Shown piece by piece: positions 14,007-57,616 of a DNA stretch of 57,635 nucleotides. Source of the DNA: Prevotella sp. (GTDB lineage Bacteria; Bacteroidota; Bacteroidia; Bacteroidales; Bacteroidaceae); NCBI GenBank assembly GCA_017474845.1, contig JAFVGS010000048.1:1-57635 (forward strand), in the 5' to 3' direction. The notes under the pieces are model-generated. The model saw nothing but the letters and a program-made list of their open reading frames with translations, searched no databases and was not told the origin of the DNA. The position numbers were made by a program, and so were the translations under genes. Each line of letters starts with the position of its first letter. The first letter of the stretch is position 1.

Positions 14007-14094
14007 CGCCTCTGACTTTGGACTATCCAAACTCCGAGTTTCCTTACTTTAAACTCCGAGTTTGCTTACTTTAAACTCCCAGCCTCCTTAGTCC
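14007..14094. repeat. 22-bp tandem array A (dyad AAACTC-C-GAGTTT)
   Basis: Units at 14029-14050 and 14051-14072 differ at one base and have a period of exactly 22 bp. A degenerate third unit follows (14073-14094) and a weak one may precede (14007-14028). Each good unit contains the 13-bp inverted repeat AAACTC-C-GAGTTT. It lies in a 770-bp gene-free stretch (13554-14324), 134 bp upstream of the BspA-like gene's promoter. Apart from this array, the symmetric element and two promoters, I see nothing else in that stretch. Confidence 0.8.
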
Positions 14095-14227
14095 TTCGTT
14101 TTAGGCAAATTCTGTATTTTATCATGTAAACAAATTTCGTACATTAATGTCTTCAAATTCTCAGTCGTTTTCTCCCACTTCTTTAAAGTCCGCTCCATTT
14201 CATGGCGATATTTTATTGGCCCAAAGC

Positions 14228-14258
14228 TTGCAAATCTCAGATTAATTGCCTAATTTTG
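14228..14258 (+). promoter_or_regulatory. Promoter of the BspA-like gene
   Basis: TTG at 14228-14230, a 20-nt gap, TAATTTTG at 14251-14258. The start codon is at 14325, giving a leader of about 60 nt. Confidence 0.7.
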
Positions 14259-14324
14259 CACTCTAAAATATGCTAAGGGCTATAAAATGCCCAAATGAAT
14301 AATTAACTATAAAACTTCGCAGAT

Positions 14325-16844
14325 GTGAAGAAGATATATTTTCTGTTCATCCTGGCTCTGCTGCCGATGGTGGTAAGTAGTAGTGTTAAGGCCGGTGTCC
14401 TCAGGTACAACCTAAATGCCGGTATGCTGACTGCAAATGAGACAGTAAGTGGCAAATGTGGCAGTAATGTCAATTATGTCTATAATAATGAGACTCATGC
14501 GCTAACTATCTCAGGCGAAGGACAAATATATGATTTTTATCCTAATGATGGGGAATATGCTCCATGGCGTCAATATGCAGGGGATATTCGTTCTTTATTT
14601 ATCGAGTCAGGTGTAACAGGCATCGGTAATTATGCTTTCTCTGAATGCTCAAACCTGAACTTCGTAACCATTCCGAATGGTGTGTCATACATTGGCAGAT
14701 GGGCTTTCTGCGGCTGTAGCAGTCTAACCACTTTGACAATCCCCAATAGTGTTGAGAAAATCGACTGGATGGCTTTCATGGGGTGTAGTAGTATGACTTC
14801 TTTGATCATCGGAAGCAGTGTGACAGATTTAAGTGAAGATACTTTCGATGGTTGTACTAACCTGAATGCTCTTTTTTGCCTTAATCCAGAACCGCCATCG
14901 TGTAATTATTCTTATAATGTAGACAAAGATAAATGTGTCTTGTGGGTACCGAAAGGGTGTGTAGAAGCATATAGGAATGCTAATGGATGGAAGGATTTCA
15001 AAAACATTGTTGCATTTAGTAAATCACCTGATGATGGTGAGAAAATATGTGGCAAATGCGGCAATAATGTCTATTATGCTTATAATAAAGAGACTCATGC
15101 GCTAACTATCTCAGGCGAAGGACAAATGGAAAGTTATGATCCTAATGATGTGGAATATGCTCCATGGTATCGATATGCAGGGGATATTCATTCATTAGTT
15201 ATCGAGTCTGGTGTAACAGGCATCGGTAATTGGGCTTTCTCTGAATGCTCAAATCTGAACTTCGTAACCATTCCAAACAGCGTGTCATACATAGGCAGAT
15301 GGGCTTTCTGCGGCTGTAGCAGTCTAACCACTTTGACAATCCCCAATAGTGTTGAGAAAATCGATTGGATGGCTTTCATGGGTTGTAGTAGTATGACTTC
15401 TTTGACCATCGGAAACAGAGTGACAGATTTAAGTGAAGATGCTTTCGATGGTTGTATTAGCCTGACTTCTATCAAAGTGGCAGATGGTAATCCGAAGTAC
15501 GACTCTCGTAACAATTGTAATGCGCTTATAGAGACGTCAACAAACACCCTCATTAAAGGATGTAATAACACCGTTATCCCTAACGGCGTGACATCCATCG
15601 GTGGTGGGGCTTTTTCTGGCTGCACAGGTTTGACCTCTGTCATCATCCCCAATGGCGTGACGTCAATAGGCTTTACTGCTTTCAGTGAATGCAGCGTTTT
15701 GTCTTCAGTGGTTATCCCAAACAGCGTAACCACCATCGGTGATGGTGCTTTCTCAAGTTGCAGCGGTCTGACCTCTGTCATCATCCCCAACAGTGTGACA
15801 TCCATTGGCTATGCCGCTTTCCAAAATTGTAGTGGTCTGATCTCCGTTATTTCTGAAATAGAGAACCCTTATGACATAGACAATCAAGTGTTTTCCGGCA
15901 TTTCTACGGATATCCAGTTAATAGTGCCAGGAGGTACAGCATCTGCCTATCAGTCTAAAACAGGGTGGAAGCAATTTACTTACATTGTAGAGACAAACGG
16001 CCAATGTGGTGAAAATGTATTTTATTCCTATGATGTATCGACTCAGACACTTACTATCTACGGTGAGGGAGCAATGTATGATTATGATTCATTTAATGCT
16101 GTAAAACCACCCCTTCCAAATGCCGCTAAATATATTATCATTGAACCTGGTGTGACCCGAATAGGCGATATGGCATTTTGCGGAAACACAAATCTGATTT
16201 CTGTCAGTATCCCCAATAGTGTGACCTCTATCGGTTATTCTTCTTTCTTCGGTTGCAGTAGCTTGTCATCATTGACAATCCCCAATGGTGTGACGTCAAT
16301 TGGCGACAATGCTTTCGGTGCTTGCAGCGGTTTGTCTTCCGTGATTATCCCCAACAGTGTAACCACCATTGGCGATTATGCTTTTGACGCTCTTGGATCA
16401 GTCACTATTGGCAAAAATGTACAATCCATAGGAAAATCTGCTTTTGGCATGCATTTAGAAGGCCCAACAAATGTTATCTCGAGGATAGAGAATCCATTCC
16501 CTATTCTTGGAGAATATTTAGGCGATTATAATAGTGAATTTACTTGGAGTACTTTCAGAAATGGTGTATTGTACGTACCTGCAGGTACTAAAGAAAAGTA
16601 TGAGGCAACGCAGGGATGGAACGAATTCCAAAACATCAAAGAGTATATTGATGGCGACGTGAATCTTGATAAAAAGATAGATTGGAATGATGTGAAAGCC
16701 TTGGTTGATTATATCATGGGTAATGCTGTGGATAATTTCTATGAAGGTTTTGCAGACCTGAATGGCGACGGCCATATAGATGCGGCTGATGTCGTGAAAC
16801 TTGTCGATATGGTTAACTCTTATGGTTTGGGTGCGGAATCATAA
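14325..16844 (+). CDS. BspA-like leucine-rich repeat surface protein with dockerin-like C-terminus
   Basis: An 839-residue secreted protein. The start is a GTG; an ATG two bases earlier reads straight into TGA and cannot be used. A signal peptide covers ~1-24. Three modules start with a G(K/Q)CGxNVxYxY ... LTIxGEG signature near residues 43, 243 and 560. Between them run LRR_5 (BspA/TpLRR) repeats of the form CSGLTSVIIPNSVTSIGxxAF. Residues ~775-835 carry two loops, DVNLDKKIDWNDV and DLNGDGHIDAADV, which fit a dockerin-like calcium-binding module. BspA-type proteins mediate binding to host or extracellular targets. A 600-bp direct duplication lies within the gene, and a coding-like tail continues in frame after the stop. 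Confidence 0.88.
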   Translation: MKKIYFLFILALLPMVVSSSVKAGVLRYNLNAGMLTANETVSGKCGSNVNYVYNNETHALTISGEGQIYDFYPNDGEYAPWRQYAGDIRSLFIESGVTGIGNYAFSECSNLNFVTIPNGVSYIGRWAFCGCSSLTTLTIPNSVEKIDWMAFMGCSSMTSLIIGSSVTDLSEDTFDGCTNLNALFCLNPEPPSCNYSYNVDKDKCVLWVPKGCVEAYRNANGWKDFKNIVAFSKSPDDGEKICGKCGNNVYYAYNKETHALTISGEGQMESYDPNDVEYAPWYRYAGDIHSLVIESGVTGIGNWAFSECSNLNFVTIPNSVSYIGRWAFCGCSSLTTLTIPNSVEKIDWMAFMGCSSMTSLTIGNRVTDLSEDAFDGCISLTSIKVADGNPKYDSRNNCNALIETSTNTLIKGCNNTVIPNGVTSIGGGAFSGCTGLTSVIIPNGVTSIGFTAFSECSVLSSVVIPNSVTTIGDGAFSSCSGLTSVIIPNSVTSIGYAAFQNCSGLISVISEIENPYDIDNQVFSGISTDIQLIVPGGTASAYQSKTGWKQFTYIVETNGQCGENVFYSYDVSTQTLTIYGEGAMYDYDSFNAVKPPLPNAAKYIIIEPGVTRIGDMAFCGNTNLISVSIPNSVTSIGYSSFFGCSSLSSLTIPNGVTSIGDNAFGACSGLSSVIIPNSVTTIGDYAFDALGSVTIGKNVQSIGKSAFGMHLEGPTNVISRIENPFPILGEYLGDYNSEFTWSTFRNGVLYVPAGTKEKYEATQGWNEFQNIKEYIDGDVNLDKKIDWNDVKALVDYIMGNAVDNFYEGFADLNGDGHIDAADVVKLVDMVNSYGLGAES
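14446..15460. repeat. Internal 600-bp duplication in the BspA-like gene
   Basis: About 415 bp from 14446-14860 recur at 15046-15460 with an offset of exactly 600 bp (200 codons) and high identity, for example identical sequence around 14701 and 15301. This indicates a fairly recent in-frame segmental duplication that added one LRR module. Confidence 0.85.
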
Positions 16845-16952
16845 CTGTATTTCGATAACGTTGGCGGTAACCTCGTGGTTTCATCTCTCTCATACACTCT
16901 GACCAATGATCGTGAAAAAATAATATGGCTTAGTACATACACTTTTCCTTGA
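16845..16952 (+). pseudogene. In-frame coding remnant after the BspA-like stop
   Basis: Directly after the TAA (16842-16844) the same frame stays open for 35 codons to TGA at 16950-16952. It reads LYFDNVGGNLVVSS then LSYTLTNDREK, which looks like protein sequence of Prevotella secreted proteins and not like random translation. I infer that the gene once continued, or that this is the scar of a lost downstream module. Confidence 0.4.
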
Positions 16953-16968
16953 TTACATAAATAGCAAC

Positions 16969-17484
16969 ATGAATAAACTGATATTGATAGCAATGGGACT
17001 ATTTACAAGTATTTTCTCTTTCGCAGAGAAAAGTGGTAAGGATGTTAAGATACCAGAAGAGAATTTTGTTGTGGTAGAAAGTTCTGCTGATGGCAAGCCA
17101 GCTGTTATAGCTGTGAACACAAGCCTTAGAAAGTTCAAGCACAAGGAACTCTATGGTTGGACTTGTTCGCTGGTAATTAAGTTCAAGGATATGGCAATAA
17201 ATGGTATGCCAACAACAGACGAAAGTAACTATGTCTTTGATTACATAGAGGAACTCGACAAGACGATTAAAGGCGACTCTATCCAACCAAATGCCGTTTA
17301 TTTAGCAAGGATAACGTGGAATGGGGCTTGTGAGGTTATATGGCAGGTCAAAGACCCTAAGGTCGTCCACGAATATCTTGGTGCTATTATCAATAACAAG
17401 ACTTATCCACGTGAGTTAGACTATAGAATAGAGTTTGATAAGAAATGGGAGAGAGTTTCTGTATACAATAAAATCAAGCCTTAA
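16969..17484 (+). CDS. Secreted or exported DUF695-like protein
   Basis: A 171-residue protein with a signal peptide (MNKLILIAMGLFTSIFSFA). The mature part resembles the DUF695 family: AVIAVNTSLRKFKHKELYGWTCSLVIKF, the NGMPTTDESNYVFDYIEELDK helix start, and YLARITWNGACEVIWQV. Family function is unknown to me. It lies 124 bp after the BspA-like gene on the same strand, with only the decayed tail in between. Its end faces the convergent barrel protein gene. Confidence 0.5.
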   Translation: MNKLILIAMGLFTSIFSFAEKSGKDVKIPEENFVVVESSADGKPAVIAVNTSLRKFKHKELYGWTCSLVIKFKDMAINGMPTTDESNYVFDYIEELDKTIKGDSIQPNAVYLARITWNGACEVIWQVKDPKVVHEYLGAIINNKTYPRELDYRIEFDKKWERVSVYNKIKP

Positions 17485-17530
17485 TTTGAGTACACACGGT
17501 GCCAGGAACGTCATGAATATTTTCATAAAA

Positions 17531-17562
17531 GAAAGAGTGCGCAGGATTTACAACCTACGCAC
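17531..17562 (-). terminator. Terminator of the barrel protein gene
   Basis: Stem GTGCGCAGG (17537-17545) and CCTACGCAC (17554-17562) with one mismatch, followed on the minus strand by TCTTTCTTTT. It lies between two convergent genes and probably serves the leftward one. Confidence 0.6.
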
Positions 17563-17615
17563 CCTCATGAAATCGAATCTCTCTCTATCTTATATGAATC
17601 TTTTGTCTCGATGGC

Positions 17616-18233
17616 TTAGAGGGGAATCTTGTAACCCAGGGTCACCATGATGACACCGTTCTTCTGTTTGAGGTTGCTGTCTTTGTTAATGCTCAGCAGG
17701 CCGAGGTTGTAGCGAGCGTCAATCACGAAGTCATTGAACTCGTAGCTCAGACCCATGGGAATCGAGAGATCGAACTTCTTTGCATCTTCAGTGCTAGTAC
17801 TTTCGTAGTCCTTCCAGCCAAAGTCGTCCATTGCTTGCCCCTTGCCCTTCAAGGAGAGCATGAATCCAGGCTGGATACCAGCCTTAATGGCGAGACCCTT
17901 GACGATGTAGTAATTTGCCATGATGGGCACGTTCAGATATGTCAGCGTGGTCTTGAAATCCCTCCAAAGTTGGGTATCCTCCATTTTTGAACCTTGCATC
18001 GACACGAGCAAGCCACCGGTCAGTGCGAACTGGTTTGTCACGTGGTATCCGAATTCAGCACCGCCTACGAGACCTATTTTCATTTTGGCATTATCTGCAT
18101 GTTCGCCTGTGATGGTGCTTAATGTGGCGCCCACCATCGGTTTCACGTACATGTCACCGGCTTCCTGATTCTGTGCATTTGCACTCAGCGTTGCTGCCAT
18201 CATGGCAGCGATCATCATCATCTTTTTCATCAT
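17616..18233 (-). CDS. PorT-family outer membrane beta-barrel protein
   Basis: A 205-residue protein with a signal peptide ending SANAQ. Residues ~28-205 show alternating strands typical of the PorT/OMP_b-brl_2 family: VKPMVGATLSTITG, KIGLVGGAEFGYHVTNQFALTGGLLVS, TLTYLNVPIMANYYIVKGLAIKAGIQPGFMLS, IPMGLSYEFNDFVIDARYNLGL and a final strand ending in GYKIPL. It is expected in the outer membrane; ligand unknown. It is a single gene with its own promoter upstream and a terminator downstream. Confidence 0.8.
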   Translation of the reverse strand: MMKKMMMIAAMMAATLSANAQNQEAGDMYVKPMVGATLSTITGEHADNAKMKIGLVGGAEFGYHVTNQFALTGGLLVSMQGSKMEDTQLWRDFKTTLTYLNVPIMANYYIVKGLAIKAGIQPGFMLSLKGKGQAMDDFGWKDYESTSTEDAKKFDLSIPMGLSYEFNDFVIDARYNLGLLSINKDSNLKQKNGVIMVTLGYKIPL

Positions 18234-18275
18234 CTTTTCTTTTCTCTAAAATTGTTTTGTTTAACTTTTCGGGTG

Positions 18276-18307
18276 CAAAGTTATGTCTATTATCGCACAC
18301 AGCCCAA
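18276..18307 (-). promoter_or_regulatory. Promoter of the barrel protein gene
   Basis: Minus strand: TTG (complement of 18305-18307), 21 nt, TAACTTTG (complement of 18276-18283). It lies just after the stop of the decayed XRE gene (18326). Confidence 0.6.
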
Positions 18308-18325
18308 CTTCCTCTGTACCTTTTC

Positions 18326-18619
18326 TCACTTCCCTCCGTTTCGTTGATAATTATCAATTGCGACTTGTATGATGGGAGCGCCAAGGGCATGCTCGATGGA
18401 TACGAGTGTGTCGATTGTGAAATTGTGTGTGCCACGCATCCATTTGCTGATTTCAGCCTTCTTCTTACCCAGTAGCAGAGCAAGGTCTTTCTGTCTGAGA
18501 CCCTTAGCCTAGAGAATCTCATAGATGCGGTCAACTATCTGGAAAGAAAGATCCACCCTCTGGCGCACTTCAGGATTAATCTGCTTGCGCCTTGCCTCAA
18601 TAATACTACTTCTCTTCAT
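18326..18619 (-). pseudogene. XRE-family HTH regulator interrupted by an amber codon
   Basis: Reading left from the ATG at 18619 gives MKRSSIIEARRKQINPEV, then RIYEIL, a TAG at codon 37 (18509-18511), then AKGLRQKDLALLLGKKK, AEISKWMRGTHNFTIDTL and EHALGAPIIQV, ending with TGA at 18326-18328. The second part is a textbook Cro/C1-type helix-turn-helix of the HigA-like kind. Both parts are in one frame, so a single base change explains the break. Its ATG overlaps the helicase stop (ATGA), indicating translational coupling to the helicase. It may be a pseudogene, or the HTH part may be made from an internal start. Confidence 0.75.
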
Positions 18620-20451: not shown

Positions 20452-20490
20452 GTATGACAATTCTGACAATTATGACAAATGACAGTGTCA
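20452..20490. repeat. TGTCAT repeat, third copy (inverted)
   Basis: The reverse complement contains GACACTGTCATTTGTCATA followed by ATTGTCA, which matches the core of the 32-bp repeat at 9405-9436 and 13859-13890 with one change over about 26 bases. It lies directly in front of the helicase start codon, between the helicase and PBP1a genes. Confidence 0.75.
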
Positions 20491-20500
20491 GATTCTGCGC

Positions 20501-35917: not shown

Positions 35918-36787
35918 ATGAAATTAGACGGAAGAAGAGAAAGTTCCAACGTGGAAGACCGCCGCGGAATTAGCGGAAAAGCAGTAGCTGGTGGTGGCAT
36001 CGGCGCAGTGATCATCGCAGCCCTGTTTGCCTGGATGAGTGGAGGTGACCCCCTCTCGGCTGGCCTGCAGGCAGCCCAGGAGCAGATGGCTCAGCGCACG
36101 GAGACCGTCGATGAGCAGAACTTCACTGAGGAGGAACAGGCGTTGGCTAGCGACTGTAAGAAGATCCTCGCCTCGACGGAAGACGTGTGGGGACCCGTGT
36201 TCGAACAGATGGGTGCCACCTACACATCTCCGACGCTTGTGCTCTTCACCAATCAGGTGAACTCTGCCTGTGGTAACGCCACGGCAGCCGTAGGTCCCTT
36301 CTATTGCTCTGGCGACCAGAAGCTATACATCGACCTATCATTCTTTACCCAGATGAAGCGCCAGCTTGGCGTCGAGGGCAACACCTTCGCCTATGCCTAC
36401 GTCATCGCCCATGAGATCGGACACCACGTGGAATATCTCACGGGTACCCTCTCGAAGGCCCATGCTCAGATGAATCAGACTGACAAGGTGAATGCTAACA
36501 AAATCAGCGTGCGCCTCGAGCTGTTGGCCGACTACTACGCCGGTGTCTGGGCCCACTACGAGGACAAGATGAACCACTCGATGGAGTATGGCGATCTGGA
36601 GAAGGGTCTCGAGCTGGCCAAGGCCATCGGCGACGACTGGCTGCAGAAGAAGGCCCAGGGCCGCGCCACGCCCGAGTCATTCACTCACGGCACCTCCGAC
36701 CAGCGCAAGCGTTGGCTGAAACGCGGCTATGAGACGGGCGACATGCGCACTTCGACCTTCAACGTACAGAATTACAACGATCTCTAA
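35918..36787 (+). CDS. YpfJ-type neutral zinc metallopeptidase
   Basis: A 289-residue protein of the YpfJ/KPN_02809 family. A short cytoplasmic stretch with the family-typical start (MKLDGRRESSNVEDRRG) is followed by a membrane helix (~25-42). The zinc motif HEIGHH lies near residue 165, with a glutamate-rich ELLADYYAGVWA segment supplying the third ligand region. The C-terminal GTSDQRKRWLKRGYETGD is also conserved. Substrate unknown. It is separated from the M15-like gene by a 53-bp TTGAACATT-type repeat and followed by a good terminator. Confidence 0.88.
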   Translation: MKLDGRRESSNVEDRRGISGKAVAGGGIGAVIIAALFAWMSGGDPLSAGLQAAQEQMAQRTETVDEQNFTEEEQALASDCKKILASTEDVWGPVFEQMGATYTSPTLVLFTNQVNSACGNATAAVGPFYCSGDQKLYIDLSFFTQMKRQLGVEGNTFAYAYVIAHEIGHHVEYLTGTLSKAHAQMNQTDKVNANKISVRLELLADYYAGVWAHYEDKMNHSMEYGDLEKGLELAKAIGDDWLQKKAQGRATPESFTHGTSDQRKRWLKRGYETGDMRTSTFNVQNYNDL

Positions 36788-36840: not shown

Positions 36841-36901
36841 ATGTCTGTTGATTGACAGTCCTTACGGATGAAACTGATGGCTTAGGCTGTTTAAACCGTT
36901 T

Positions 36902-36989
36902 GTCGACATATGTCAACCAATTAGTTGACTTAAGTCAGCGAACCAGTTGACTGGAGTCAGCCAATAAGTTGACATAGTGTCAGCAATTA
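36902..36989. repeat. 22-bp tandem array B (dyad GTTGAC-N4-GTCAGC)
   Basis: Four units of exactly 22 bp: 36902-36923, 36924-36945, 36946-36967 and 36968-36989. The consensus is close to GTTGACnnnnGTCAGC then CAATTA. Each unit has an inverted GTTGAC/GTCAAC-like dyad; in the last unit the second half shifts by one base. It lies between the terminator and the glmS promoter, in a 360-bp gene-free stretch (36788-37147). Confidence 0.85.
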
Positions 36990-37147: not shown

Positions 37148-38992
37148 ATGTGTGGAATCGTAGGATATATTGGTAAAAAGGATGCATATCCCATCCTCAT
37201 CAAGGGACTGAGACGGCTGGAGTATCGCGGCTATGATAGTGCCGGCGTGGCTCTGATCAATGCTGGCGGCGACCTGAACGTGTACAAGACGAAGGGCAAG
37301 GTGGACAACCTGACGGAATACTGTGCCGACAAGGACGTGAGCGGCTGCGTGGGCATCGCCCACACGCGCTGGGCCACCCACGGCGAACCCTCCAGCAGAA
37401 ACGCTCACCCGCACTATTCTGAGTCGAAGAACCTCGCCATCATCCACAACGGTATCATCGAGAACTATGCTGACCTGAAAACGAAACTGGAAGCGAAGGG
37501 CGTGCACTTCATCAGCGACACTGACACCGAAGTGTTGGTGCAGTTGATAGAGTATATCAAGGATCACAAGCAGCTCGACCTGCTGACGGCCGTACAGGTG
37601 GCGCTCTATCAGGTGATCGGCGCCTATGCCATCGCCGTACTTGACAAGAATGATCCCTCGCAGATCATCGCCGCCCGCAAGCAGAGTCCGTTGGTCGTGG
37701 GTATCGGCGAGGACGAGTTTTTCTTAGGCTCCGACGCCAGCCCCATCGTGGAGTATACGGACAAAGTTGTTTTTCTGGAGGACGGTAACATTGCCGTGAT
37801 CCGGCTGGGACAGGAACTGCACGTGGTGAACATCCTCGGCGAGGACCAGGAACTGAAGGTGAAGACCGTAGACATCGACCTCGGACAGATCGAGAAGGGC
37901 GGCTATCCGCACTTCATGCTGAAGGAGATCTTTGAGCAGCCGGAGTGCTTGACGAACTGCATGCGCGGCCGTGTGAACGTGGAGGCCGACCATGTGACGC
38001 TCTCGGCGCTGATAGACTACCGCCGTCAGCTGCTGGAGGCGAAACGTGTGGTAATAGTGGCCTGCGGCACATCGTGGCATGCCGGACTCATCGGCAAGCA
38101 GATCATTGAGACGCTCTGCCGCATACCCGTCGAGGTGGAATATGCCTCGGAGTTCAGATACAGGAATCCCGTAGTGGGCAAGGGCGACGTAGTGATTGCC
38201 ATCTCGCAGAGTGGTGAGACGGCCGACACGCTAGCCGCCGTGCAGCTGGCCAAGGAGAGAGGCGCTTTCATCTACGGCATCTGCAACGCCATCGGTTCGA
38301 GCATCCCCAGGGCCACGGACACAGGTACGTATATCCATGTAGGGCCGGAGATCGGTGTGGCTTCGACGAAAGCCTTCACGGGCCAGGTGACGGTGCTTAC
38401 GATGATTGCCTTAGCGATGGGCGAGGCAAAGGGTACGGTGAATCGCCAGGAGTATCTGAAGATCGTGAAGGGCCTGAGCGAGATACCCGTGAAGATCCGA
38501 GAGGTGCTGCAGACGAACGACAAGGTGGCCGACCTCGCACGCACCTTTACATACGCCCATAACTTCCTCTACCTGGGTCGCGGATTCTCCTATCCTGTAG
38601 CCCTTGAGGGAGCGCTGAAGCTGAAGGAAATATCATATATCCACGCTGAGGGCTATCCCGCCGCGGAGATGAAGCACGGCCCCATCGCACTCATCGACTC
38701 AGACATGCCCGTGGTGGTGATCGCAACGCACAATGCGATGTATGAGAAGGTGCTGTCGAACATCCAGGAGATCAAGGCACGGCATGGCAGGGTGATTGCC
38801 CTTGTGTCGAAAGGCGACGACGTGATAACGAAGATCGCCGACGAGGTGATTGAACTGCCCGACGTGCAGGAATGCCTGGAACCGCTGGTGGCCACAATCC
38901 CCCTGCAACTGCTGGCCTATCACGTGGCCGTTTGCAAAGGAAAGAACGTAGATCAGCCGAGAAACCTCGCAAAATCGGTGACTGTTGAGTGA
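37148..38992 (+). CDS. glmS: Glucosamine-fructose-6-phosphate aminotransferase
   Basis: Makes glucosamine 6-phosphate from fructose 6-phosphate and glutamine, the entry to peptidoglycan and lipid A sugars. I start at ATG 37148 so that Cys2, the glutaminase nucleophile, follows the initiator Met (MCGIVGYIG); the longer frame crosses the promoter. 614 residues. The glutaminase half has HTRWATHGEPSSRNAHPH. Two SIS isomerase domains follow, with CGTSWHAGL, SQSGETADT and the C-terminal LAKSVTVE. Confidence 0.97.
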   Translation: MCGIVGYIGKKDAYPILIKGLRRLEYRGYDSAGVALINAGGDLNVYKTKGKVDNLTEYCADKDVSGCVGIAHTRWATHGEPSSRNAHPHYSESKNLAIIHNGIIENYADLKTKLEAKGVHFISDTDTEVLVQLIEYIKDHKQLDLLTAVQVALYQVIGAYAIAVLDKNDPSQIIAARKQSPLVVGIGEDEFFLGSDASPIVEYTDKVVFLEDGNIAVIRLGQELHVVNILGEDQELKVKTVDIDLGQIEKGGYPHFMLKEIFEQPECLTNCMRGRVNVEADHVTLSALIDYRRQLLEAKRVVIVACGTSWHAGLIGKQIIETLCRIPVEVEYASEFRYRNPVVGKGDVVIAISQSGETADTLAAVQLAKERGAFIYGICNAIGSSIPRATDTGTYIHVGPEIGVASTKAFTGQVTVLTMIALAMGEAKGTVNRQEYLKIVKGLSEIPVKIREVLQTNDKVADLARTFTYAHNFLYLGRGFSYPVALEGALKLKEISYIHAEGYPAAEMKHGPIALIDSDMPVVVIATHNAMYEKVLSNIQEIKARHGRVIALVSKGDDVITKIADEVIELPDVQECLEPLVATIPLQLLAYHVAVCKGKNVDQPRNLAKSVTVE

Positions 38993-47166: not shown

Positions 47167-47192
47167 CTTTTTACCCTTTTACCTTTTCACCT

Positions 47193-49817: not shown

Positions 49818-49849
49818 CAAAGGTACGATAATTCCGCGAAATAAACAAA
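49818..49849 (-). promoter_or_regulatory. Promoter of the LacI-uxaA unit
   Basis: Minus strand: TTTG (complement of 49846-49849), 20 nt, TACCTTTG (complement of 49818-49825). Confidence 0.7.
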
Positions 49850-49868
49850 CTAAAAACGAAAATTGTGT

Positions 49869-49898
49869 ACGTAAACGAAATCATGTAATCGTTTCCGT
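49869..49898. promoter_or_regulatory. Candidate LacI-type operator
   Basis: Arms ACGTAAACGA (49869-49878) and TCGTTTCCGT (49889-49898) match as an inverted repeat at nine of ten positions, with a 10-bp centre. It lies between the two divergent promoters, 20 bp from the left -33 box and 28 bp from the right one, as expected for the regulator's own site. Confidence 0.55.
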
Positions 49899-49926
49899 AT
49901 TTTTTTCCTTTAAATCCCTTAAAATA

Positions 49927-49958
49927 TTTGTGTAAGTCAGAAATAGTTGCTAACTTTG
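49927..49958 (+). promoter_or_regulatory. Promoter of kdgK and the aldolase gene
   Basis: TTTG 49927-49930, 20 nt, TAACTTTG 49951-49958, about 55 nt before the kdgK start. Confidence 0.7.
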
Positions 49959-50019
49959 TGGTCGCAAACTGAAAATCAATTTATTTACATATTATAATAA
50001 TTAAAAAAGGAAAAAGAAA

Positions 50020-51042: not shown

Positions 51043-51074
51043 TCCGATATTACATTATTGTTATTTCGATAATT

Positions 51075-51743
51075 ATGGCAAAGTTTGATAAGATAGCTGT
51101 CCTGAAGAAGATCGGTGACACTGGTATGGTGCCCGTCTTCTATCACAAGGACCTCGAGACTTGTAAGAATGTGGTGAAGGCCTGCTACGAGGGTGGCGTC
51201 CGTGCCTTCGAGTTTACCAACCGCGGCGACTTCGCCCACGAGATCTTCGGCGAGCTGGTGAAGTGGGCCGACAAGGAGTGCCCTGAACTGGCATTAGGTG
51301 TCGGTTCTGTGGTCGATGCTCCTACGGCTTCCCTTTACATCCAGCTGGGTGCCTGCTTCGTGGTGGGTCCGTTGTTCAATCCCGACATCGCCCCCGTATG
51401 CAATCGTCGTCTGGTGCCCTACTGCCCGGGTTGTATGACCGTGAGCGAGATCGGTAAGGCCCAGGAGTTGGGTTGCGACCTGACGAAGGTATTCCCCGGC
51501 GACGTGGTAGGTCCGAACATGGTGAAGGGTTTGAAGGCCCCGATGCCCTGGTCGAAGATCATGGTGACCGGCGGCGTGGCTCCAGAGGAGGAGAACCTGA
51601 CGAAGTGGTTCAAGGCCGGTGTGTTCTGCGTCGGCATGGGCTCGAAGCTGTTCCCCTCTGACAAGGTGAAGGCCGGCGACTGGCAGTACGTGACCGACAA
51701 GTGCAAGGAAGCGCTCGGCTACGTGGCCAAGGCCCGCGCATAA
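51075..51743 (+). CDS. eda: KDPG aldolase
   Basis: Splits KDPG into pyruvate and glyceraldehyde 3-phosphate. The 222-residue class I aldolase shows [35 protein letters not shown] (with the conserved Glu), [23 protein letters not shown], and [15 protein letters not shown] with the Schiff-base type lysine environment. Last enzyme of the hexuronate route encoded here. A terminator follows at once. Confidence 0.93.
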
Positions 51744-51753
51744 TAAACGTCTA

Positions 51754-51781
51754 TCCCCTCTGTCTCAATGGACAGGGGGGA
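51754..51781 (+). terminator. Terminator after the aldolase gene
   Basis: Stem TCCCCTCTGTC (51754-51764) with GACAGGGGGGA (51771-51781, one G-T pair), then TTCTATTCTT. It ends 14 bp before the next start codon, so that gene needs its own promoter or read-through. Confidence 0.65.
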
Positions 51782-51795
51782 TTCTATTCTTACTC

Positions 51796-54700
51796 ATGAA
51801 ATTCTGGCTATTCATCATATCAACCATTCTCATCTCAGCCTGTTCACGCCCAGACCGGGGCGCCGTGGACAAGTTGAATTCCCTCTCTTATGCTTTTCAT
51901 TACCGCAACATCGACTCGGCCCAGGCTTATGCCGTCAGGGCCTATAAACTGAGCGACGGTTACAGCGAGGGTAGGGCGGAGGCAAGTAACAATCAAGCCT
52001 TCGTCAGCATCGTCCGCATGCAGTACGACGATGCTGAGATGCTGCTGGATGAAGTGCTGGAGACGAGCGACAACCAGGTGGAGCGGATGGTGGCCTACGT
52101 GCAGCACATGCGGCTTTGTCAGCGCCGTTCGCGTAATCGTGAGTTCCATGAGTACCGTCAGCTGGCCGACGAGGCATTGAACCGCATCAACGAGGAGCGC
52201 CGTCAGCTCTCGCCCCGACAGCTGCGCCGTCTGCACTATGCCGAGAGCGAGTACGCCATCGTCAACTCCACCTATTATTATTATGTGGGTCTGGAGAAAC
52301 AGTCCATCGAGGCCCTCCACGCTATCAACCCCAACGAGGTGCAGCGCGACACCGCCCAGATGCTCAACTGGTTGTATAACATCGGAGCGGGCGGCATCAT
52401 CACTCAGGGCACGCAGCAGGAAATCAACCAGCAGGAGTTCGACCACCTGATGCGCTGCTTCCTCATCGCCCGGCAGGGCGACTACCCCTTCTTCGCCGCC
52501 AACGCCCTCGAGGCCCTCTCCGAGCACCTGATGGACCCAGACTACCGCCGTCAGCTGCTCGCAGACAACCTGCCCGCGATGAAGTTCATCAATCCCGAGG
52601 ACGTCGACGAGGATATGCTCTCGGGATGGCTCGCTGAGAACGCGCTCGCCATCTTCGAACAGTATGGCGATATCTACCAGATTGCCGGTGCCTACCGAAC
52701 CCTCGCCTCTTGCTACAGACAGATCGGCGACTACGAATCGGCACTCTACAACCTCGAACAGGCGCTCTCCGACTCACTCATCTATCAGGCTCCCGACCTC
52801 GTGGCGTCTATCCGTGAACAGCTCAGTGTGGCCTATGCCGCCATCGACGACAAGCAGCAGAGCGACTACAACCGCAACCTCTACCTCGACCTCCAGGAGA
52901 CTACCCGACAGGACCGTCAGCTTGAGGCTCGCGCCATACAGTATGAGAAGACCGCCGGGCAGCTGAACCTCATGCTGGGTGCCGTCGTCATCGCCATCAT
53001 CCTGTTGCTCTTCTCGCTTTGGCTCTTCAACCACATGAACCGCCGCAAGCGCCGTGAGGACATCCCCGACGACCTCTTCGAACAGAAGCGCGAACAGCTG
53101 GCCGTACAGCGCCTGCGGGTGGAGAACGGCGAACGCCTCAGCCTCGAACAGCGGGCGAAGATCTCGCTCGTCAACAGCATCACGCCCTTCATCGACCGCA
53201 TCATACATGAAGTAGGCGAGAAGGCGAGAAGGCGAGAAGGAGTAAGGAGTGAGGAGACGATGGACTACGTCCGCGAGCTGACCGACCAGATCAATGACTA
53301 CAACGAGGTGCTCACCTACTGGATACAGCTGCGTCAGGGAGACCTCAGCCTTCATATCGAGAGTTTCCCCCTGCAGTCGCTCTTCGACCTGCTGGGGCGC
53401 GGACGCACGTCATTCCAGATGAAGGGCGTCGACCTCGAGGTGCAGCCCACGGAAACCGTGGTCAAGGCCGACAAGGTGCTCACCCTCTTCATGCTCAACA
53501 CGCTGGCCGACAATGCTCGTAAGTTCACGCCCAAGGACGGCCGCGTCACCGTCTCTGCACGCGACCTCGACGACCGTGTAGAGATTGCCGTCGAAGACAC
53601 CGGCCAGGGCATGACGCAAGACCAGCTCGACCATCTCTTCGACCATAAGATAGAGGGCGGTCACGGCTTTGGCCTTCTCAACTGCAAGGGCATCATCGAG
53701 AAGTACCGCAAGGTCAGCCAGATCTTCTCCGTCTGTTCGATGGGCGCCACCAGCACCCTCGGCCGTGGCAGCCGCATCAGCTTCACCCTCCCCAAGGGAA
53801 TCATACGACTGTTGGTCGCTTTATTTCTTTTAGTCGCTTCGCTTGGTAATAGCTCTTACGCGAGGGGGACGCTTGCTACCGAAGGGACCCGGGAATTAGT
53901 AAAGGCCGAGGCTTTCGCCGACTCCGCCTATTTCTCCAATATCAACGGCACCTACGAGCGCACGCTCTTCTTTGCTGACTCCTGCCGCTACTATCTCAAC
54001 GCCCACTACCGCCAGCTGCACCCCCACGGCCGTTACCTCATGCGCCAGATGGGCAATCCCTCGCTGTTGGCCCCGGAGATCAAATGGTTCCACGACAGCC
54101 TGAAGACCAACTACCAGGTCATCCTCGACATCCGCAACGAGAGCGCCGTCGCAGCCCTCGCTCTCCACCAGTGGCAGCTCTACAGCTACAACAACCGCAT
54201 CTACACCCAGCTCTTCAAGGAGCTGTCGGCCGACAACACTCTCGGCGACTACTGCCGCACGATGCAGCAGTCGCAGACCAACAAGACCATCGCCGTCATC
54301 CTGCTCGTGCTCCTCTTGCTCGCCATCGTGCCAGCCTACTATCTGCTCTACTACCGCCACCGCCTCTACGACCGTTTCCTGCGCGAACAGCAGCGGCAGA
54401 ACAGCCTCGAGATGCTCGATGACGACATCCGCAAGGCAGAACTCGAAGACGGCAACCTGCACGTGTCGAACGCCGTGCTCGACAACTGCCTCTCCGCCCT
54501 GAAGCATGAGACAATGTACTATCCCTCGCGCATCCGTCAGCTGCTCGACGCCGGTGATGTGGAGGCCCTGGGCGAGGTCACCCGCTACTACCGCGAGCTC
54601 TACGGCGTGCTCAGCCGTCAGGCCATGCGACAGGTGGAGCGCGCCACGCTCCATCTCAAGCCCCTCGAGGGCGGCGTGCTGGGTGACGAGACGCTCATCC

Positions 54701-55020
54701 GCTACCTCTACGAGATCCTGCGCCGCCAGAACGGCCAGCAGCGACTCGACAAGCAGTTCACGCCCCGCGACGACCGTTACGTCGAGGTGCGCATCCCCAT
54801 GCCGCAGCTCCGGCTCACCCCTGAGCAGGCTGCCGATCTCTTCACGCCTTCCAAGGCGCACATCCCCTTCCTGCTCTGCCGTCAGATCGTCAGGGACCAC
54901 GGTGAGGCCACCAACCGTCGCGGCTGCGGCATCTTCGCCGAGCTCGCCGATGCCGTGACCACCATCGTCATCACCCTCCCAGCCGCTCCATACAGAGATG
55001 ATAATAAGAAACGAATTTGA
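51796..55020 (+). CDS. Double sensor histidine kinase-like lipoprotein (DUF5112/DUF5113-like)
   Basis: A 1074-residue protein. The N-terminus is a lipoprotein signal (ILISACSRP). Residues ~30-370 are helical TPR-like repeats. TM1 is ~390-413. A cytoplasmic kinase half follows: H-box-like IIHEVG near 470, N box NTLADNARKF, G1 DTGQGM and G2 GHGFGL (to ~665). TM2 is ~668-690, then a second extracytoplasmic part, TM3 ~830-853, and a second cytoplasmic half with an H-box-like LKHETMYYPSRI near 900 but no G1/G2 boxes. I recall Prevotella annotations naming such regions DUF5112 and DUF5113. The response regulator gene follows after about 27 bp. It could be a fusion of two once separate sensors. Confidence 0.75.
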   Translation: MKFWLFIISTILISACSRPDRGAVDKLNSLSYAFHYRNIDSAQAYAVRAYKLSDGYSEGRAEASNNQAFVSIVRMQYDDAEMLLDEVLETSDNQVERMVAYVQHMRLCQRRSRNREFHEYRQLADEALNRINEERRQLSPRQLRRLHYAESEYAIVNSTYYYYVGLEKQSIEALHAINPNEVQRDTAQMLNWLYNIGAGGIITQGTQQEINQQEFDHLMRCFLIARQGDYPFFAANALEALSEHLMDPDYRRQLLADNLPAMKFINPEDVDEDMLSGWLAENALAIFEQYGDIYQIAGAYRTLASCYRQIGDYESALYNLEQALSDSLIYQAPDLVASIREQLSVAYAAIDDKQQSDYNRNLYLDLQETTRQDRQLEARAIQYEKTAGQLNLMLGAVVIAIILLLFSLWLFNHMNRRKRREDIPDDLFEQKREQLAVQRLRVENGERLSLEQRAKISLVNSITPFIDRIIHEVGEKARRREGVRSEETMDYVRELTDQINDYNEVLTYWIQLRQGDLSLHIESFPLQSLFDLLGRGRTSFQMKGVDLEVQPTETVVKADKVLTLFMLNTLADNARKFTPKDGRVTVSARDLDDRVEIAVEDTGQGMTQDQLDHLFDHKIEGGHGFGLLNCKGIIEKYRKVSQIFSVCSMGATSTLGRGSRISFTLPKGIIRLLVALFLLVASLGNSSYARGTLATEGTRELVKAEAFADSAYFSNINGTYERTLFFADSCRYYLNAHYRQLHPHGRYLMRQMGNPSLLAPEIKWFHDSLKTNYQVILDIRNESAVAALALHQWQLYSYNNRIYTQLFKELSADNTLGDYCRTMQQSQTNKTIAVILLVLLLLAIVPAYYLLYYRHRLYDRFLREQQRQNSLEMLDDDIRKAELEDGNLHVSNAVLDNCLSALKHETMYYPSRIRQLLDAGDVEALGEVTRYYRELYGVLSRQAMRQVERATLHLKPLEGGVLGDETLIRYLYEILRRQNGQQRLDKQFTPRDDRYVEVRIPMPQLRLTPEQAADLFTPSKAHIPFLLCRQIVRDHGEATNRRGCGIFAELADAVTTIVITLPAAPYRDDNKKRI

Positions 55021-55047
55021 ATAATATGCATAATTTTGTCCACGAAT

Positions 55048-55767
55048 ATGAATAATTTTAAGGTAATTATCGTTGAGGACGTGCCCCTCGAACTTAAAGG
55101 CACCCTCGGTATCGTCCGCTCCGACATCCCCGAGGCGGAAGTGATTGGCACGGCTGACACGGAGCCTGCCTACTGGCGACTGCTCAAGCAGCAGATTCCC
55201 GACCTCGTACTCCTCGACCTCGGCCTCGGCGGCTCCACTACCGTCGGCGTGGAGATCTGTCGCCACACCAAGGAGCTCCACCCACAGGTGAAGGTGCTCA
55301 TCTTCACGGGTGAGATCCTGAACGAGAAGCTGTGGGTCGACGTGCTCGACGCCGGCGCCGACGGCATCATCCTCAAGACGGGCGAGCTGCTGACGCGCCG
55401 CGACGTGTCGGCCGTGATGGACGGCAAGCAGCTGGTGTTCAACGAGCCCATCCTCGAGAAGATCGTCGAGCGCTTCAAGGCCTCCGTCAGCGGCAGGATC
55501 GTGAAGCAGGAGGCGCTGGTGAACTATGAGATCGACGAGTACGACGAGCGTTTCCTCCGCCACCTCGCCCTGGGCTACACGAAGGAGCAGATCACCAACC
55601 TGCGCGGCATGCCTTTCGGCGTGAAGAGCCTTGAGAAGCGGCAGAACGAGCTCATCCAGAAACTCTTCCCCGAGGGCAACGGCGGCATCAACGCCACGCG
55701 CCTCGTCGTCCGGGCCATTGAGCTCCGCATCCTCGACATCGACAATCTCCACCCGGATGAAGAATAA
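55048..55767 (+). CDS. Response regulator (LuxR-like output, DUF5932-like)
   Basis: A 239-residue regulator. I start at ATG 55048 (MNNFKVIIVED); the longer frame starts with TTG four codons earlier. The receiver (~1-130) has the acidic VED pocket, phospho-acceptor Asp near 57 in LVLLDLGLGG, a TGE segment and ILKTGE with the conserved lysine. Residues ~165-225 form an HTH-type output (FLRHLALGYTKEQITNLRGMPFGVKSLEKRQNEL), similar to LuxR. It most likely receives phosphate from the double sensor encoded immediately upstream. Confidence 0.8.
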   Translation: MNNFKVIIVEDVPLELKGTLGIVRSDIPEAEVIGTADTEPAYWRLLKQQIPDLVLLDLGLGGSTTVGVEICRHTKELHPQVKVLIFTGEILNEKLWVDVLDAGADGIILKTGELLTRRDVSAVMDGKQLVFNEPILEKIVERFKASVSGRIVKQEALVNYEIDEYDERFLRHLALGYTKEQITNLRGMPFGVKSLEKRQNELIQKLFPEGNGGINATRLVVRAIELRILDIDNLHPDEE

Positions 55768-56425
55768 AGAGAAGGAGGCATCGAAGCGACGGATTCCGCT
55801 CCTAAGCAAGGAGAGGTTAGGCGCGGTAGGCCTCGTCCTCCTGTTGTCCGAGGCCCTGCTCTTCATCCTCTCGTGGCTGCTCTCTGCCACGAGGATGGAG
55901 GGCGTGCGCTCGCTGCTCTCCAGCGAGGGCATCCGCTGGTTCTTCGGTTCATGGCAGACGATCGTCGCCTCGCCGCTGCTCGTGTGGCTCCTCCTTGGTC
56001 TCATCGCCCTCGGCAGCCTCCAGAAGAGCGACCTGATCAGGAGTGGTCAGAATGGCGGTAGCCAATATTTCATTTTCCACTATTCACTTTTACCTTTCCG
56101 CGACCGCCTTGCCCTCCGCGTCTCGCTCGTCTTCCTGGCCATCTATCTCGTCATCCTGGCCCTGCTCACGCTGACGCCTCACGCCATCCTCCTCTCGGCC
56201 ACGGGCCATCTCTTTCCCTCGGCCTTCAGCCGCAGCCTTGTGCCGGTCATCGCCTTCGGGGTGTGCCTGGTCTCCGTCACCTTCGGCCTTGTGTCGGGAC
56301 GCCTGCGCAGCCTTGCCGACATCCTCGACGCCCTCAGTTCCGGCATCGTCCACGGCGCCCCGATTATCGTCGTCTACCTTTTCGCCGTCCAGCTCTACGC
56401 ATCCCTCCGCTTCGTCTTCGGCTGA
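55757..56425 (+). CDS. Multi-pass membrane protein
   Basis: A 222-residue protein with about five to six hydrophobic helices. The start overlaps the response regulator stop by 11 bp, so it belongs to the same operon. RSLLSSEGIRWFFGSWQTIVASPLLVWLLLGLIALGSLQKSDLI resembles the first part of AbgT/YfcC-type carriers as I remember them, but the length is less than half of such carriers, so I do not assign transport. Residues ~98-112 (GQNGGSQYFIFHYSLLPF) fall on a pyrimidine-rich repeat (56,050-56,096) like those seen between genes, probably an in-frame insertion. Confidence 0.6.
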   Translation: MKNKEKEASKRRIPLLSKERLGAVGLVLLLSEALLFILSWLLSATRMEGVRSLLSSEGIRWFFGSWQTIVASPLLVWLLLGLIALGSLQKSDLIRSGQNGGSQYFIFHYSLLPFRDRLALRVSLVFLAIYLVILALLTLTPHAILLSATGHLFPSAFSRSLVPVIAFGVCLVSVTFGLVSGRLRSLADILDALSSGIVHGAPIIVVYLFAVQLYASLRFVFG

Positions 56426-56485
56426 TGCTCACGTTGGCGCAGACGGTGACGATTTCCATTAAAACTTGTCACTTTTTCCGTGCGA

Positions 56486-56519
56486 TTGTCGTTTATTTAG
56501 AAAATAATGTGTATCTTTG
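56486..56519 (+). promoter_or_regulatory. Possible promoter of the antitoxin gene
   Basis: TATCTTTG at 56512-56519 is a good -7 box, with TTG at 56486-56488, but the spacing of 23 nt is longer than usual. Confidence 0.45.
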
Positions 56520-56545
56520 CAGGCGAAAGTTTAAATAAATGTATC

Positions 56546-56794
56546 ATGATAGGAACACTTAAAGCAAGTGATGTCTATATGGACATACTTGATACGTTGC
56601 CCAATGAGGATAAACTCGACTTGATTTCCAAACTTGTCAAGTCGATGAAGAAAGCCGTCACTGTGAAGAAAAAGCCGAAGGACGTCTTCGCCCGCTTCTC
56701 CAATGATTGGGGTGGGGACATGACTACCGAGGACTATGCCGATATGCTTCGTAGTGAGAACGTGGAGAGTACACGAACCGTTGAAACTTGGTAA
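56546..56794 (+). CDS. VapB-like antitoxin
   Basis: An 82-residue protein (start ATG 56546, MIGTLKASDVYMDILDTLPNEDKLDLISKLVKSM). The first half is helical, the second half acidic with WGGDMTTEDYADMLRSENVESTRTVETW, as in small antitoxins that bind PIN toxins. The next gene, six bases after its stop, is the start of a PIN-domain toxin, which supports the pairing. The antitoxin appears intact while its toxin is truncated. Confidence 0.65.
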   Translation: MIGTLKASDVYMDILDTLPNEDKLDLISKLVKSMKKAVTVKKKPKDVFARFSNDWGGDMTTEDYADMLRSENVESTRTVETW

Positions 56795-56800
56795 TCTGTT

Positions 56801-56932
56801 ATGCCTAAGTATCTGCTTGACACCTGTGTCTGTATCTCCATGTTCCGTAATGAGGGTAATGTTCGCGATACCCTTCGAAATGTAGGAGTTGAGAAAAAAA
56901 ATGATATAAGATATTATGGAAACAACAATTAG
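56801..56932 (+). pseudogene. Truncated VapC/PIN toxin
   Basis: ATG at 56801 opens a 43-codon frame, MPKYLLDTCVCISMFRNEG then NVRDTLRNVGVEKKNDIRYYGNNN, ending at TAG 56930-56932. The start (YLLDTCVC with the first PIN aspartate) is typical of VapC, which is normally about 130 residues. After VGVEK the sequence runs into the STAS gene, so most of the toxin is deleted. Only the first of the conserved acidic residues survives, so nuclease activity is unlikely. Confidence 0.75.
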
Positions 56933-57221
56933 AAAAGACGACGACAACCAGGTAACCTTGATACTTGACGGTTATCTCGACAACTCTGTCACCCCACAGA
57001 CCGAGAAGGAAGTGGAACCACTCTACGAGTTCTGCGACTGCGAGATTCTCATCGACTGCAGCCGGCTGGAGTACATCTCCTCCAGTGGCCTGCGACTGCT
57101 GATGACTATCAACCAGCGCTGCCGACAGAACCGCTGCAGCCTTTACATCAAGGGCTTGCAGGAGAAGGTGAAGGACGTGTTCCAGACCACAGGATTCATC
57201 AACCTGTTCGATTTCAAGTAG
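56916..57221 (+). CDS. STAS-domain protein (anti-sigma factor antagonist-like)
   Basis: A 101-residue single-domain STAS protein. IDCSRLEYISSSGLRLLM near residue 45-63 is the STAS signature, whose serine is the site phosphorylated in SpoIIAA-type proteins. It would take part in a partner-switching pathway, but no anti-sigma kinase gene is visible nearby. Its start codon lies inside the truncated VapC frame. Confidence 0.88.
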   Translation: METTIRKDDDNQVTLILDGYLDNSVTPQTEKEVEPLYEFCDCEILIDCSRLEYISSSGLRLLMTINQRCRQNRCSLYIKGLQEKVKDVFQTTGFINLFDFK

Positions 57222-57271
57222 CATTTTAATAGATCAAGTGACGGTTCTCTGATCCGTTAGATACGAAAACA

Positions 57272-57312
57272 GGAGGGCGGCGCTTCCGCCACGGCGGACG
57301 GCACCGCCCTCC
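57272..57312. terminator. GC-rich nested hairpin
   Basis: Outer stem GGAGGGCGG (57272-57280) with CCGCCCTCC (57304-57312) and an inner stem CCGCC (57286-57290) with GGCGG (57293-57297), followed by TTTCCCTC. It lies 50 bp after the STAS gene and may terminate it. The T-run is weak. Confidence 0.55.
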
Positions 57313-57413
57313 TTTCCCTCTGCCGACAGAAGAAAACAAGGAAGAAACGTGAGAGAAATATGAACATGTCTAACCATCAAGACAGTGGGCGCCCTCCGCC
57401 GGAATATCAGAGG

Positions 57414-57616
57414 TGATGCACATGGCCGGGAGCTTCCGTGAACATGAACGGAAACCGCCATGCATATGAACGGCGGCGGCCATGAGCATCACCAGAAACG
57501 GTCATGTATCATGACGGGAGCGAATCATGTATCATGAATGGACAGAATCATGTATCATGACGCGAGCAAATCATGTATCATGAACGGAGCAGGCCATGCA
57601 GATGGCGATTTCCAGA
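57414..57616. repeat. 22-23 bp tandem array C (dyad TCATG-TAT-CATGA)
   Basis: About nine units. The four clear ones are 57502-57524, 57525-57547, 57548-57570 and 57571-57593, each 23 bp, each starting TCATGTATCATGA and differing mainly in the last ten bases. Before them lie degenerate units of 22 bp at 57414-57435, 57436-57457, 57458-57479 and 57480-57501, and after them a degenerate one (57594-57616). Apart from this array and the hairpin, 57222-57635 holds no gene I can see. Confidence 0.85.

What the first reader, a model, noticed from the sequence alone, without database searches (positions are those of the whole stretch)
14007..57616. Three unrelated tandem arrays share one design: 22-bp units with an internal dyad
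Arrays at 14,007-14,094, 36,902-36,989 and 57,414-57,616 have different sequences (AAACTC-C-GAGTTT; GTTGAC-N4-GTCAGC; TCATG-TAT-CATGA), yet each has a period of 22 bp (22-23 in the third) and each unit has a short inverted repeat at its start followed by 6-10 less conserved bases. All are intergenic. A period of 22 bp is about two helical turns. Unrelated sequences with the same architecture suggest a common process that makes or uses such arrays: operators for different regulators, structured RNA, or a locus type that builds palindromic units de novo. I know of no named feature that fits.
Basis: seen in the sequence. Interest (0 to 1): 0.85.

Follow-up and report, generated by a model that had tools for sequence, protein, structure and literature searches.

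The report
Dispersed palindrome arrays with HU partners
Short tandem arrays of small palindromes, spaced about 22 base pairs apart, are scattered between genes in Prevotella and related gut bacteria, and one type repeatedly sits beside, and changes in step with, the gene of an HU-like DNA-binding protein, which suggests they are that protein's own docking sites.

Summary
The three arrays are real and non-random, and their design (22-23 bp period, palindromic unit, unrelated sequences) is a class found across the genus: in 858 kb, tandem dyads peak at 21-23 bp (21 hits, 3 of them the window's own; 3 in five shuffles). Arrays 1 and 2 belong to families with up to 110 and 147 matches per genome; array 3 recurs at a second contig end. 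Six of six array-2 copies have four units, the last with a 5-bp centre. Arms do not covary as hairpins would, so a DNA site fits better than RNA. The new result is a partner: genes of one clade of HU-HIG proteins (HU fold plus a tail) have a 21-23 bp array within 350 bp in 14 of 30 loci, 23 of 30 with relaxed settings, against 18 of 545 random genes, in 19 of 20 gene neighbourhoods, and the motif follows protein clade and genome. Array 2's best match outside its two genomes lies beside such a gene, by one base over a copy that does not. Binding and function are inferred; partners of arrays 1 and 3 are not shown.

The parts
14007..14094 (.). Array 1 (family AAASTC-S-GASTTT, 22 bp): two perfect units (14029-14041, 14051-14063) between degenerate ones; between a reading frame without a named family (12828-13655, minus strand) and a leucine-rich-repeat (BspA-like) gene at 14325
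   Evidence: family elsewhere in this genome: C68, C83; 16 pair matches
36889..36901 (+). Leader GTTTAAACCGTTT, kept with changes in the six array-2 copies of G000 and G018 and in L153
36902..36984 (+). Array 2: four units (36902-36917, 36924-36939, 36946-36961, 36968-36984), the last with a 5-bp centre
   Evidence: copies C30 and C69 in this genome and three in G018
35918..36787 (+). Upstream gene: KPN_02809-family neutral zinc metallopeptidase
   Evidence: 340 bits, cut-off 250
37148..38992 (+). Downstream gene glmS; array 2 ends about 160 bp before it
57387..57635 (.). Repeated element holding array 3 (57414-57610, 22-23 bp, TCATG-TAT-CATGA); runs off the contig; the same 249 bp ends contig C58

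Best explanation
The arrays are dispersed DNA docking sites, one motif for each HU-fold DNA-binding protein. In the array-2 family the partner is a clade of HU-HIG proteins (HU domain plus a C-terminal tail, probably a winged helix). I propose that a dimer binds each GAC-N4-GTC palindrome; the 22-bp step (two helical turns) puts neighbouring dimers on one face, so three to seven units form a bent or wrapped complex. Because arrays lie between genes in any orientation, the effect is probably on chromosome folding rather than on one promoter. Arrays 1 and 3 would be sites of other paralogues (this genome has 15 matches to the HU-HIG model, classical HU possibly included). Shown: arrays, dispersal, gene-array linkage, co-occurrence, motif tracking the protein. 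Inferred: binding, geometry, function, and any partner for arrays 1 and 3.
For: Clustering of the neighbours of 119 array loci brought out HU-like genes without being asked for them; 13 of 119 loci hold one, 12 of the 13 within 11-166 bp of the array, from 11 different records. Pfam HU-HIG above cut-off in 5 of 5 proteins tested, one of them clade 1. Reverse test: clade-2 genes found by protein search in 249 genomes; array within 350 bp in 14 of 30 returned loci, within 450 bp in 15 of 30, relaxed settings plus eye 23 of 30; four more clade-2 loci 2 of 4; random genes 18 of 545, glmS 1 of 29 (the window's own). 19 of 20 distinct neighbourhoods. Two protein subclades with 100/100 support carry their own motif types, with arrayless members among them. 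In 8 genomes with both kinds, the array at the gene resembles that genome's own scattered arrays best in 6 and second best in 2, permutation p 0.0002. Presence in 249 genomes: family 2 with clade 2, 18 of 44 against 14 of 205, p 8.5e-8; family 1 with clade 1, 18 of 24 against 29 of 225, p 2.5e-10; off-diagonal odds 1.1-4.4. Array 2's best match outside G000/G018 is the array beside a clade-2 gene in L153, 69 of 96 bases with the same leader and 5-bp last unit; shuffled queries reach 49.
Against: No binding was tested. G000 (59% complete) and G018 (90%) carry array-2 copies but no clade-2 gene at E 1e-25; G142, with 147 matches, has none either, and G235, with 96, only a weak one (2.7e-26). L164, a scattered copy with no HU gene found in it, matches array 2 almost as well as L153 (68 of 96). 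Clade-1 genes are not next to arrays more often than random genes (1 of 30), so that pair rests on co-occurrence, which shared descent can inflate. HU-HIG genes in general are only weakly linked: 3 of 30 top hits, 1 of 11 in this genome, 2 of 7 weaker relatives of clade 2, 0 of 2 others in G142. The tail scores as a helix-turn-helix only weakly, in 1 of 3 tails, below cut-off. Some off-diagonal tables are also enriched (p down to 0.0013).
Confidence: 0.55

Rival explanations
1. Non-autonomous mobile elements of the BrickBuilt type (a minisatellite inside a MITE), spread by a transposase; the HU gene is a passenger or host factor.
For: Dispersed, intergenic, no gene-orientation preference (37 tandem, 23 divergent, 17 convergent, against 40, 21, 13 in control gaps; 77 of 119 loci usable). 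G142 copies have outer inverted repeats ending near GTGC/GCAC; a 31-bp inverted repeat flanks the array in L114 (by eye). Array 3's element is duplicated at 99%.
Against: IS5-like terminal repeats are at chance level in the window (6 against 5.1 expected) and none lies near an array; no inverted repeat of 12 bp or more encloses a window array; no target duplication seen by eye in 27 G142 copies with two good ends. Does not explain why motif and HU protein change together.
Confidence: 0.2
2. Ordinary operators: each array controls the gene beside it, and the HU protein represses itself and a regulon.
For: In G000 and G018 several arrays lie upstream of a promoter-like TAnnTTTG box (by eye; the box is recalled). 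Arrays lie within 400 bp of the HU gene.
Against: Arrays lie 3' of the HU gene in 15 and 5' in 8 of 23 loci by the strands (the cruder strand test gave 14 and 9); in the named loci 4 are 3' and 8 are 5' (the far one left out). They occur between convergent genes (17 of 77) and show no orientation bias.
Confidence: 0.13
3. Structured RNA: each unit is a hairpin in a transcript.
For: Short arms with 3-5 nt centres would fit small stem-loops; G.U-like cells occur.
Against: In 50 G142 copies the variable arm pair does not covary: unit 2 has C.A 16, T.G 14, C-G 17, T-A 3. In 26 family-1 units positions 4/10 are C-G 10, G-C 2, G.G 8, C.C 6 (counted by eye). C.A is about as common as T.G, so no strand is favoured. 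No Rfam family in the window but tRNAs.
Confidence: 0.04
4. Strain-specific slippage minisatellites with no function.
For: Unit number varies in some families: 4, 6 and 7 in three G240 copies; 4, 5 and 4 in three G197 copies.
Against: Unit number is constant in others: four in 6 of 6 array-2 copies; three in 50 of 50 fetched G142 copies, each closed on both sides by nearly invariant AACTT/AAGTT, though the search pattern itself needs three units and would miss shorter copies. Same motif at dozens of separate loci. Period peak at 22 over unrelated sequences.
Confidence: 0.04

Closest known systems
BrickBuilt of Porphyromonas gingivalis (PMC4596501; abstract, sections 5, 7 part 1 and 8 read, passages elsewhere)
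   Same: Bacteroidales; 23-nt tandem units whose latter half is less conserved; intergenic, dispersed (19 copies), variable unit number; one of the 19 (BrickBuilt_14) lies beside a PF00216 (HU-family) gene
   Different: BrickBuilt has leader and tail with IS5-like terminal repeats and one sequence reported only from P. gingivalis and P. gulae; here many unrelated motifs share the design, no such terminal repeat was found at the window arrays, and unit number is constant in some families
REP/BIME elements with RAYT transposases (PMC3733652, passages read)
   Same: Short intergenic palindromes in many copies, clustered, with a linked protein gene
   Different: The one RAYT locus read in each of G000 and G018 has other palindromes beside it (by eye); the linked protein here is HU-fold, not a transposase; strict 22-bp phasing
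parS/ParB-type or matS/MatP-type chromosomal site-protein pairs (recalled)
   Same: Palindromic sites scattered in the chromosome, one set beside the protein gene
   Different: HU fold, three to seven units in 22-bp register, up to over a hundred copies, rapid motif turnover
IHF binding at E. coli BIMEs (recalled)
   Same: HU/IHF-fold protein on interspersed palindromic repeats
   Different: One general IHF there; here a clade-specific protein and motif

Membership tests
BrickBuilt MITE | 22-23 bp tandem units, intergenic, several copies per genome | tested here: met
BrickBuilt MITE | Terminal inverted repeats (IS5-like GAGACCTTTGCA) around the array | tested here: not met
   for the window arrays; other inverted repeats exist around arrays in G142 and L114
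BrickBuilt MITE | Leader and tail sequences shared between copies | tested here: inconclusive
   short leader shared in array-2 copies; no shared tail seen
REP/RAYT | Repeat flanks a RAYT gene of the same genome | tested here: not met
   one RAYT locus each read in G000 and G018, different palindromes; a second, weaker match in G000 (C55) was not read
REP/RAYT | GTAG or CGTC tag at one end of the palindrome | not tested
   no systematic test
HU-HIG site-protein pair (proposed) | Array beside the gene in many unrelated neighbourhoods | tested here: met
   (clade 2 only; clade 1 not met)
HU-HIG site-protein pair (proposed) | Array motif matches protein clade and the genome's own scattered arrays | tested here: met
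   (clade 2)
HU-HIG site-protein pair (proposed) | Protein binds the array | not testable with these tools
Structured RNA | Compensatory changes in arms | tested here: not met
   (50 copies, G142)

The most novel reading that the evidence does not exclude
Bacteroidales carry a chromosome-wide addressing system of many parallel channels: each HU-HIG paralogue reads its own 22-bp-phased palindrome array, scattered over the genome and renewed as protein and motif co-evolve, so that a single genome (here with 15 matches to the HU-HIG model and at least five array motifs seen) runs several separate nucleoid-organising codes at once.
Probability: 0.3. Interest if true: 0.92.

Novelty: new variant of a known kind. 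Interest (0 to 1): 0.75.

Why it matters
Genes matching the HU-HIG model are numerous in these gut bacteria (6 to 31 in the 14 genomes searched, classical HU possibly included because the model also rings in E. coli and others), and by title none of the four papers that contain the string HU-HIG concerns them (one, PMC11035120 on a Bacteroides vulgatus strain, was not opened). If each clade reads its own dispersed array, their role becomes testable site by site, unexplained minisatellites such as BrickBuilt gain a candidate partner, and the pairs give a natural series of co-evolved protein-DNA specificities. It would also mean that bacterial HU-fold proteins, usually treated as nearly sequence-blind (recalled), can have chromosome-wide sequence-specific addresses.

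Tried and rejected
RAYT/REP origin: RAYT genes found but with other palindromes beside the two read. RNA hairpins: no covariation. IS5-like terminal repeats: chance level. Target duplications in G142: none seen by eye in 27 copies. Array 3 upstream of a multicopy HU gene: no match between the contig end and the loci held, HU contigs among them. Gene orientation: as in control gaps. Position conservation before glmS: no array detected in the 29 other glmS loci fetched. General HU-HIG to array link: weak. Clade 1 beside family 1: not above background within 350 bp; family-1 arrays at about 490-600 bp in 3 further loci and at about 840 bp in one, of some 50 looked at. My first guess that the gene upstream of glmS is an aldolase was wrong. 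The synteny count was spoilt by antisense reading frames over the HU gene and was redone. A profile search of solved structures put WD-40 proteins on top through one 28-residue stretch that does not pass on its own; HU and IHF chains follow at 2.6e-5 and weaker. Literature: ten searches listed no paper that by title or abstract start describes this array class or HU-HIG with arrays; most subscription journals are missing from the library.
Full report
Observation. The three arrays exist as described. Array 1 has two perfect and two degenerate units, array 2 four units, array 3 four perfect 23-bp units with looser ones before them. A dyad detector (two units, at least 6 of 8 complementary arm pairs each, at least 11 of 16 tandem identity, at least 4 G+C) finds all three; 100 Markov shuffles of the window give one hit in all at 21-23 bp. 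Array 3 runs into the contig end, and the last 249 bp recur at 99% at the end of another contig.

A genus-wide class. I scanned 858 kb: the window plus 40 stretches of 20 kb at arbitrary coordinates from seven genomes. The selection is not fully blind: the window was picked for its arrays, and I knew the large contigs of these genomes from earlier hits. Hits by period are 15 at 22 bp, 4 at 21, 2 at 23, of which the window gives 2, 0 and 1; no other period has more than 2 except 18, 27 and 36 (9, 6, 7), and one search shows such hits in G187, whose arrays have a 9-bp period. Five shuffles of the whole set gave 3 hits at 21-23 bp. Six genomes of other families of the order gave 4 in 400 kb (1 in five shuffles); 100 kb of E. 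coli K-12 gave 0. The sequences are unrelated: GTCCAACGAATTGGAC, TTCTAGACCCTAGAA, TACGTCACGACGTA, GGAAGTATACTTTTACGG and others.

Families. A pair of array-1 units (3 mismatches allowed) matches in 24 of 249 genomes, up to 110 places per genome; the reversed control pattern matches in 15 genomes, in 13 of them once or twice but 23 and 25 times in two, one of which (G006) is also among the 24, so single hits and G006 are not evidence. Three units of array 2 match in 44 of 249 genomes, up to 147 places, against 10 genomes for the control, 11 places at most; many of the 44 have one match only.

Anatomy. The six array-2 copies found by similarity in G000 and G018 all have four units, the last with a 5-bp centre, after a GTTTAAACCGTTT-like leader; a further G018 array of the pattern, on C305, has another centre and was not examined. 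One of the six is orthologous between the two genomes by its flanks (by eye). In G142, 50 of 50 fetched copies (of 147 matches) have exactly three units, closed on both sides by nearly invariant AACTT/AAGTT, with outer inverted repeats that fade outward; the search pattern needs three units, so shorter copies would be missed. In G240 and G197 the number varies. Arm positions that vary do not covary, so the conserved thing is a half-site in DNA, not a stem. Arrays lie between genes: 77 of 119 named loci could be classed, 21 had the array inside a mechanical reading frame (mostly short ones) and 21 lay at an edge; orientation classes resemble those of other gaps.

A partner. All-against-all comparison of the neighbours of the 119 arrays brought out HU-like proteins as the one larger group lying mostly next to the arrays. 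Thirteen loci have one, twelve within 11-166 bp of the array, from eleven records; five of five proteins tested are Pfam HU-HIG, one of them clade 1. The profile of eleven of them (clade 2, A2) was searched in 249 genomes: 40 genomes at 1e-25, 32 below 1e-50. Of the 30 loci returned, 14 have a 21-23 bp dyad array within 350 bp under the strict detector; relaxed settings and reading by eye make it 23 (none in L370, L374-L377, L379, L380, of which L380 ends at a contig end). Other sets: four more clade-2 loci 2 of 4; weaker relatives 2 of 7; top HU-HIG hits of 14 genomes 3 of 30; clade 1, 1 of 30; HU-HIG genes of this genome 1 of 11 (of 15 matches); two others in G142 0 of 2; glmS 1 of 29, the window's own; random genes 18 of 545. 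With reading frames over the HU gene removed, the 30 loci fall into 20 neighbourhoods without a shared flanking gene within the fetched flanks (1.5 kb, less at contig ends); 19 contain a gene with an array by the relaxed count, so the pair is not one inherited locus. The array may be 5' or 3' of the gene (8 and 15 by strands; one search gave 9 and 14 from a cruder strand test).

Co-evolution. On the tree of 38 clade-2 proteins the CCACTTAAGTGG-type arrays occur only in one clade with 100/100 support (three of its eight members; none detected in the other five) and the GCGAC-type only in another (three of four) (labels by eye); two further loci, L484 and L485, not in the tree, carry the GCGAC type too. 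In eight genomes with both kinds, the array at the gene is most like that genome's own scattered arrays in six and second in two (permutation p 0.0002; six of the eight have only one scattered array in the test, and for G145 only one unit of the gene's array was used). Presence tables: family 2 with clade 2 (E below 1e-50, a cut chosen after seeing the list) odds 9.4, p 8.5e-8; family 1 with clade 1 (E 1e-25) odds 20, p 2.5e-10; off-diagonal odds 1.1-4.4 with p down to 0.0013. These tables assume that the four searches drew the same 249 genomes, and the p-values ignore phylogeny.

Link to the window. Array 2 (36889-36984) has its best match outside G000 and G018 in L153 (uncultured Prevotella, 69 of 96 bases, same leader, same 5-bp last unit), which lies beside a clade-2 gene; a scattered copy without a HU gene, L164, follows with 68. 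G000 itself shows no clade-2 gene; its assembly is 59% complete. For array 1 only co-occurrence of the clade-1 HU protein and the motif is known. For array 3 no partner is known. In this genome at least one HU-HIG gene (C78) has its own 21-bp array 66 bp away.

Verdict. A real, widespread class of phased palindrome arrays; for one family a strong computational case that the cognate protein is an HU-HIG protein. Binding and function remain to be tested.

Noticed in passing
G187, L266 and L267 (8.5-19 kb): Arrays of dyads with a 9-bp period (GTCGGACAA, GTCNGAC), a different spacing from the 22-bp class.
   Followed up: no
L153 about 4080-4175: A second, unrelated tandem array of about 22 bp (near CGGAGTAATCTGACTGTTTGCC, four units, by eye) directly abuts the array-2-type array beside the HU gene.
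   Followed up: no
G018 (13 genes), G160 (11), G107 (11); G000 contigs C19 and C68: Clade-1 HU-HIG genes are multicopy; two contigs of this genome start inside one, and one copy is followed by a small hydrophobic peptide gene.
   Followed up: partly
L477 (G000:C78), about 990-1050: 21-bp dyad array ATTCCAAGGCCTGAAATTTAT, three units, 66 bp from a HU-HIG gene of the window's own genome.
   Followed up: no
L288 (G000:C69:30001-50000), 7700-7790: Four near-identical 22-bp units with AAGTATACTT, a further array motif in this genome.
   Followed up: no
L326 (G142:C12) and L489 (G142:C26): Two other HU-HIG genes of one genome each have their own array: AGTGAGATGGCCTCACT (22 bp) and GTGTTAAACACCCATCGACAACA (23 bp, found with relaxed settings only).
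   Followed up: no
L063 (G000:C24), about 1345-1375 and 2240-2270: A RAYT-type Y1 transposase gene between inverted copies of a TGTAACAGAGGGACGGTTCTTTTGTTACA-like palindrome.
   Followed up: no
window 13770-13900 and L047 1300-1400: Near both family-1 arrays lies an AT-rich stretch with GAAATATTTC followed by TGACACTGTCAT repeats, perhaps another dispersed repeat or an orthologous region.
   Followed up: no
window 15573-16384: 69-bp and 138-bp coding repeats of the leucine-rich-repeat (BspA-like) gene downstream of array 1.
   Followed up: no
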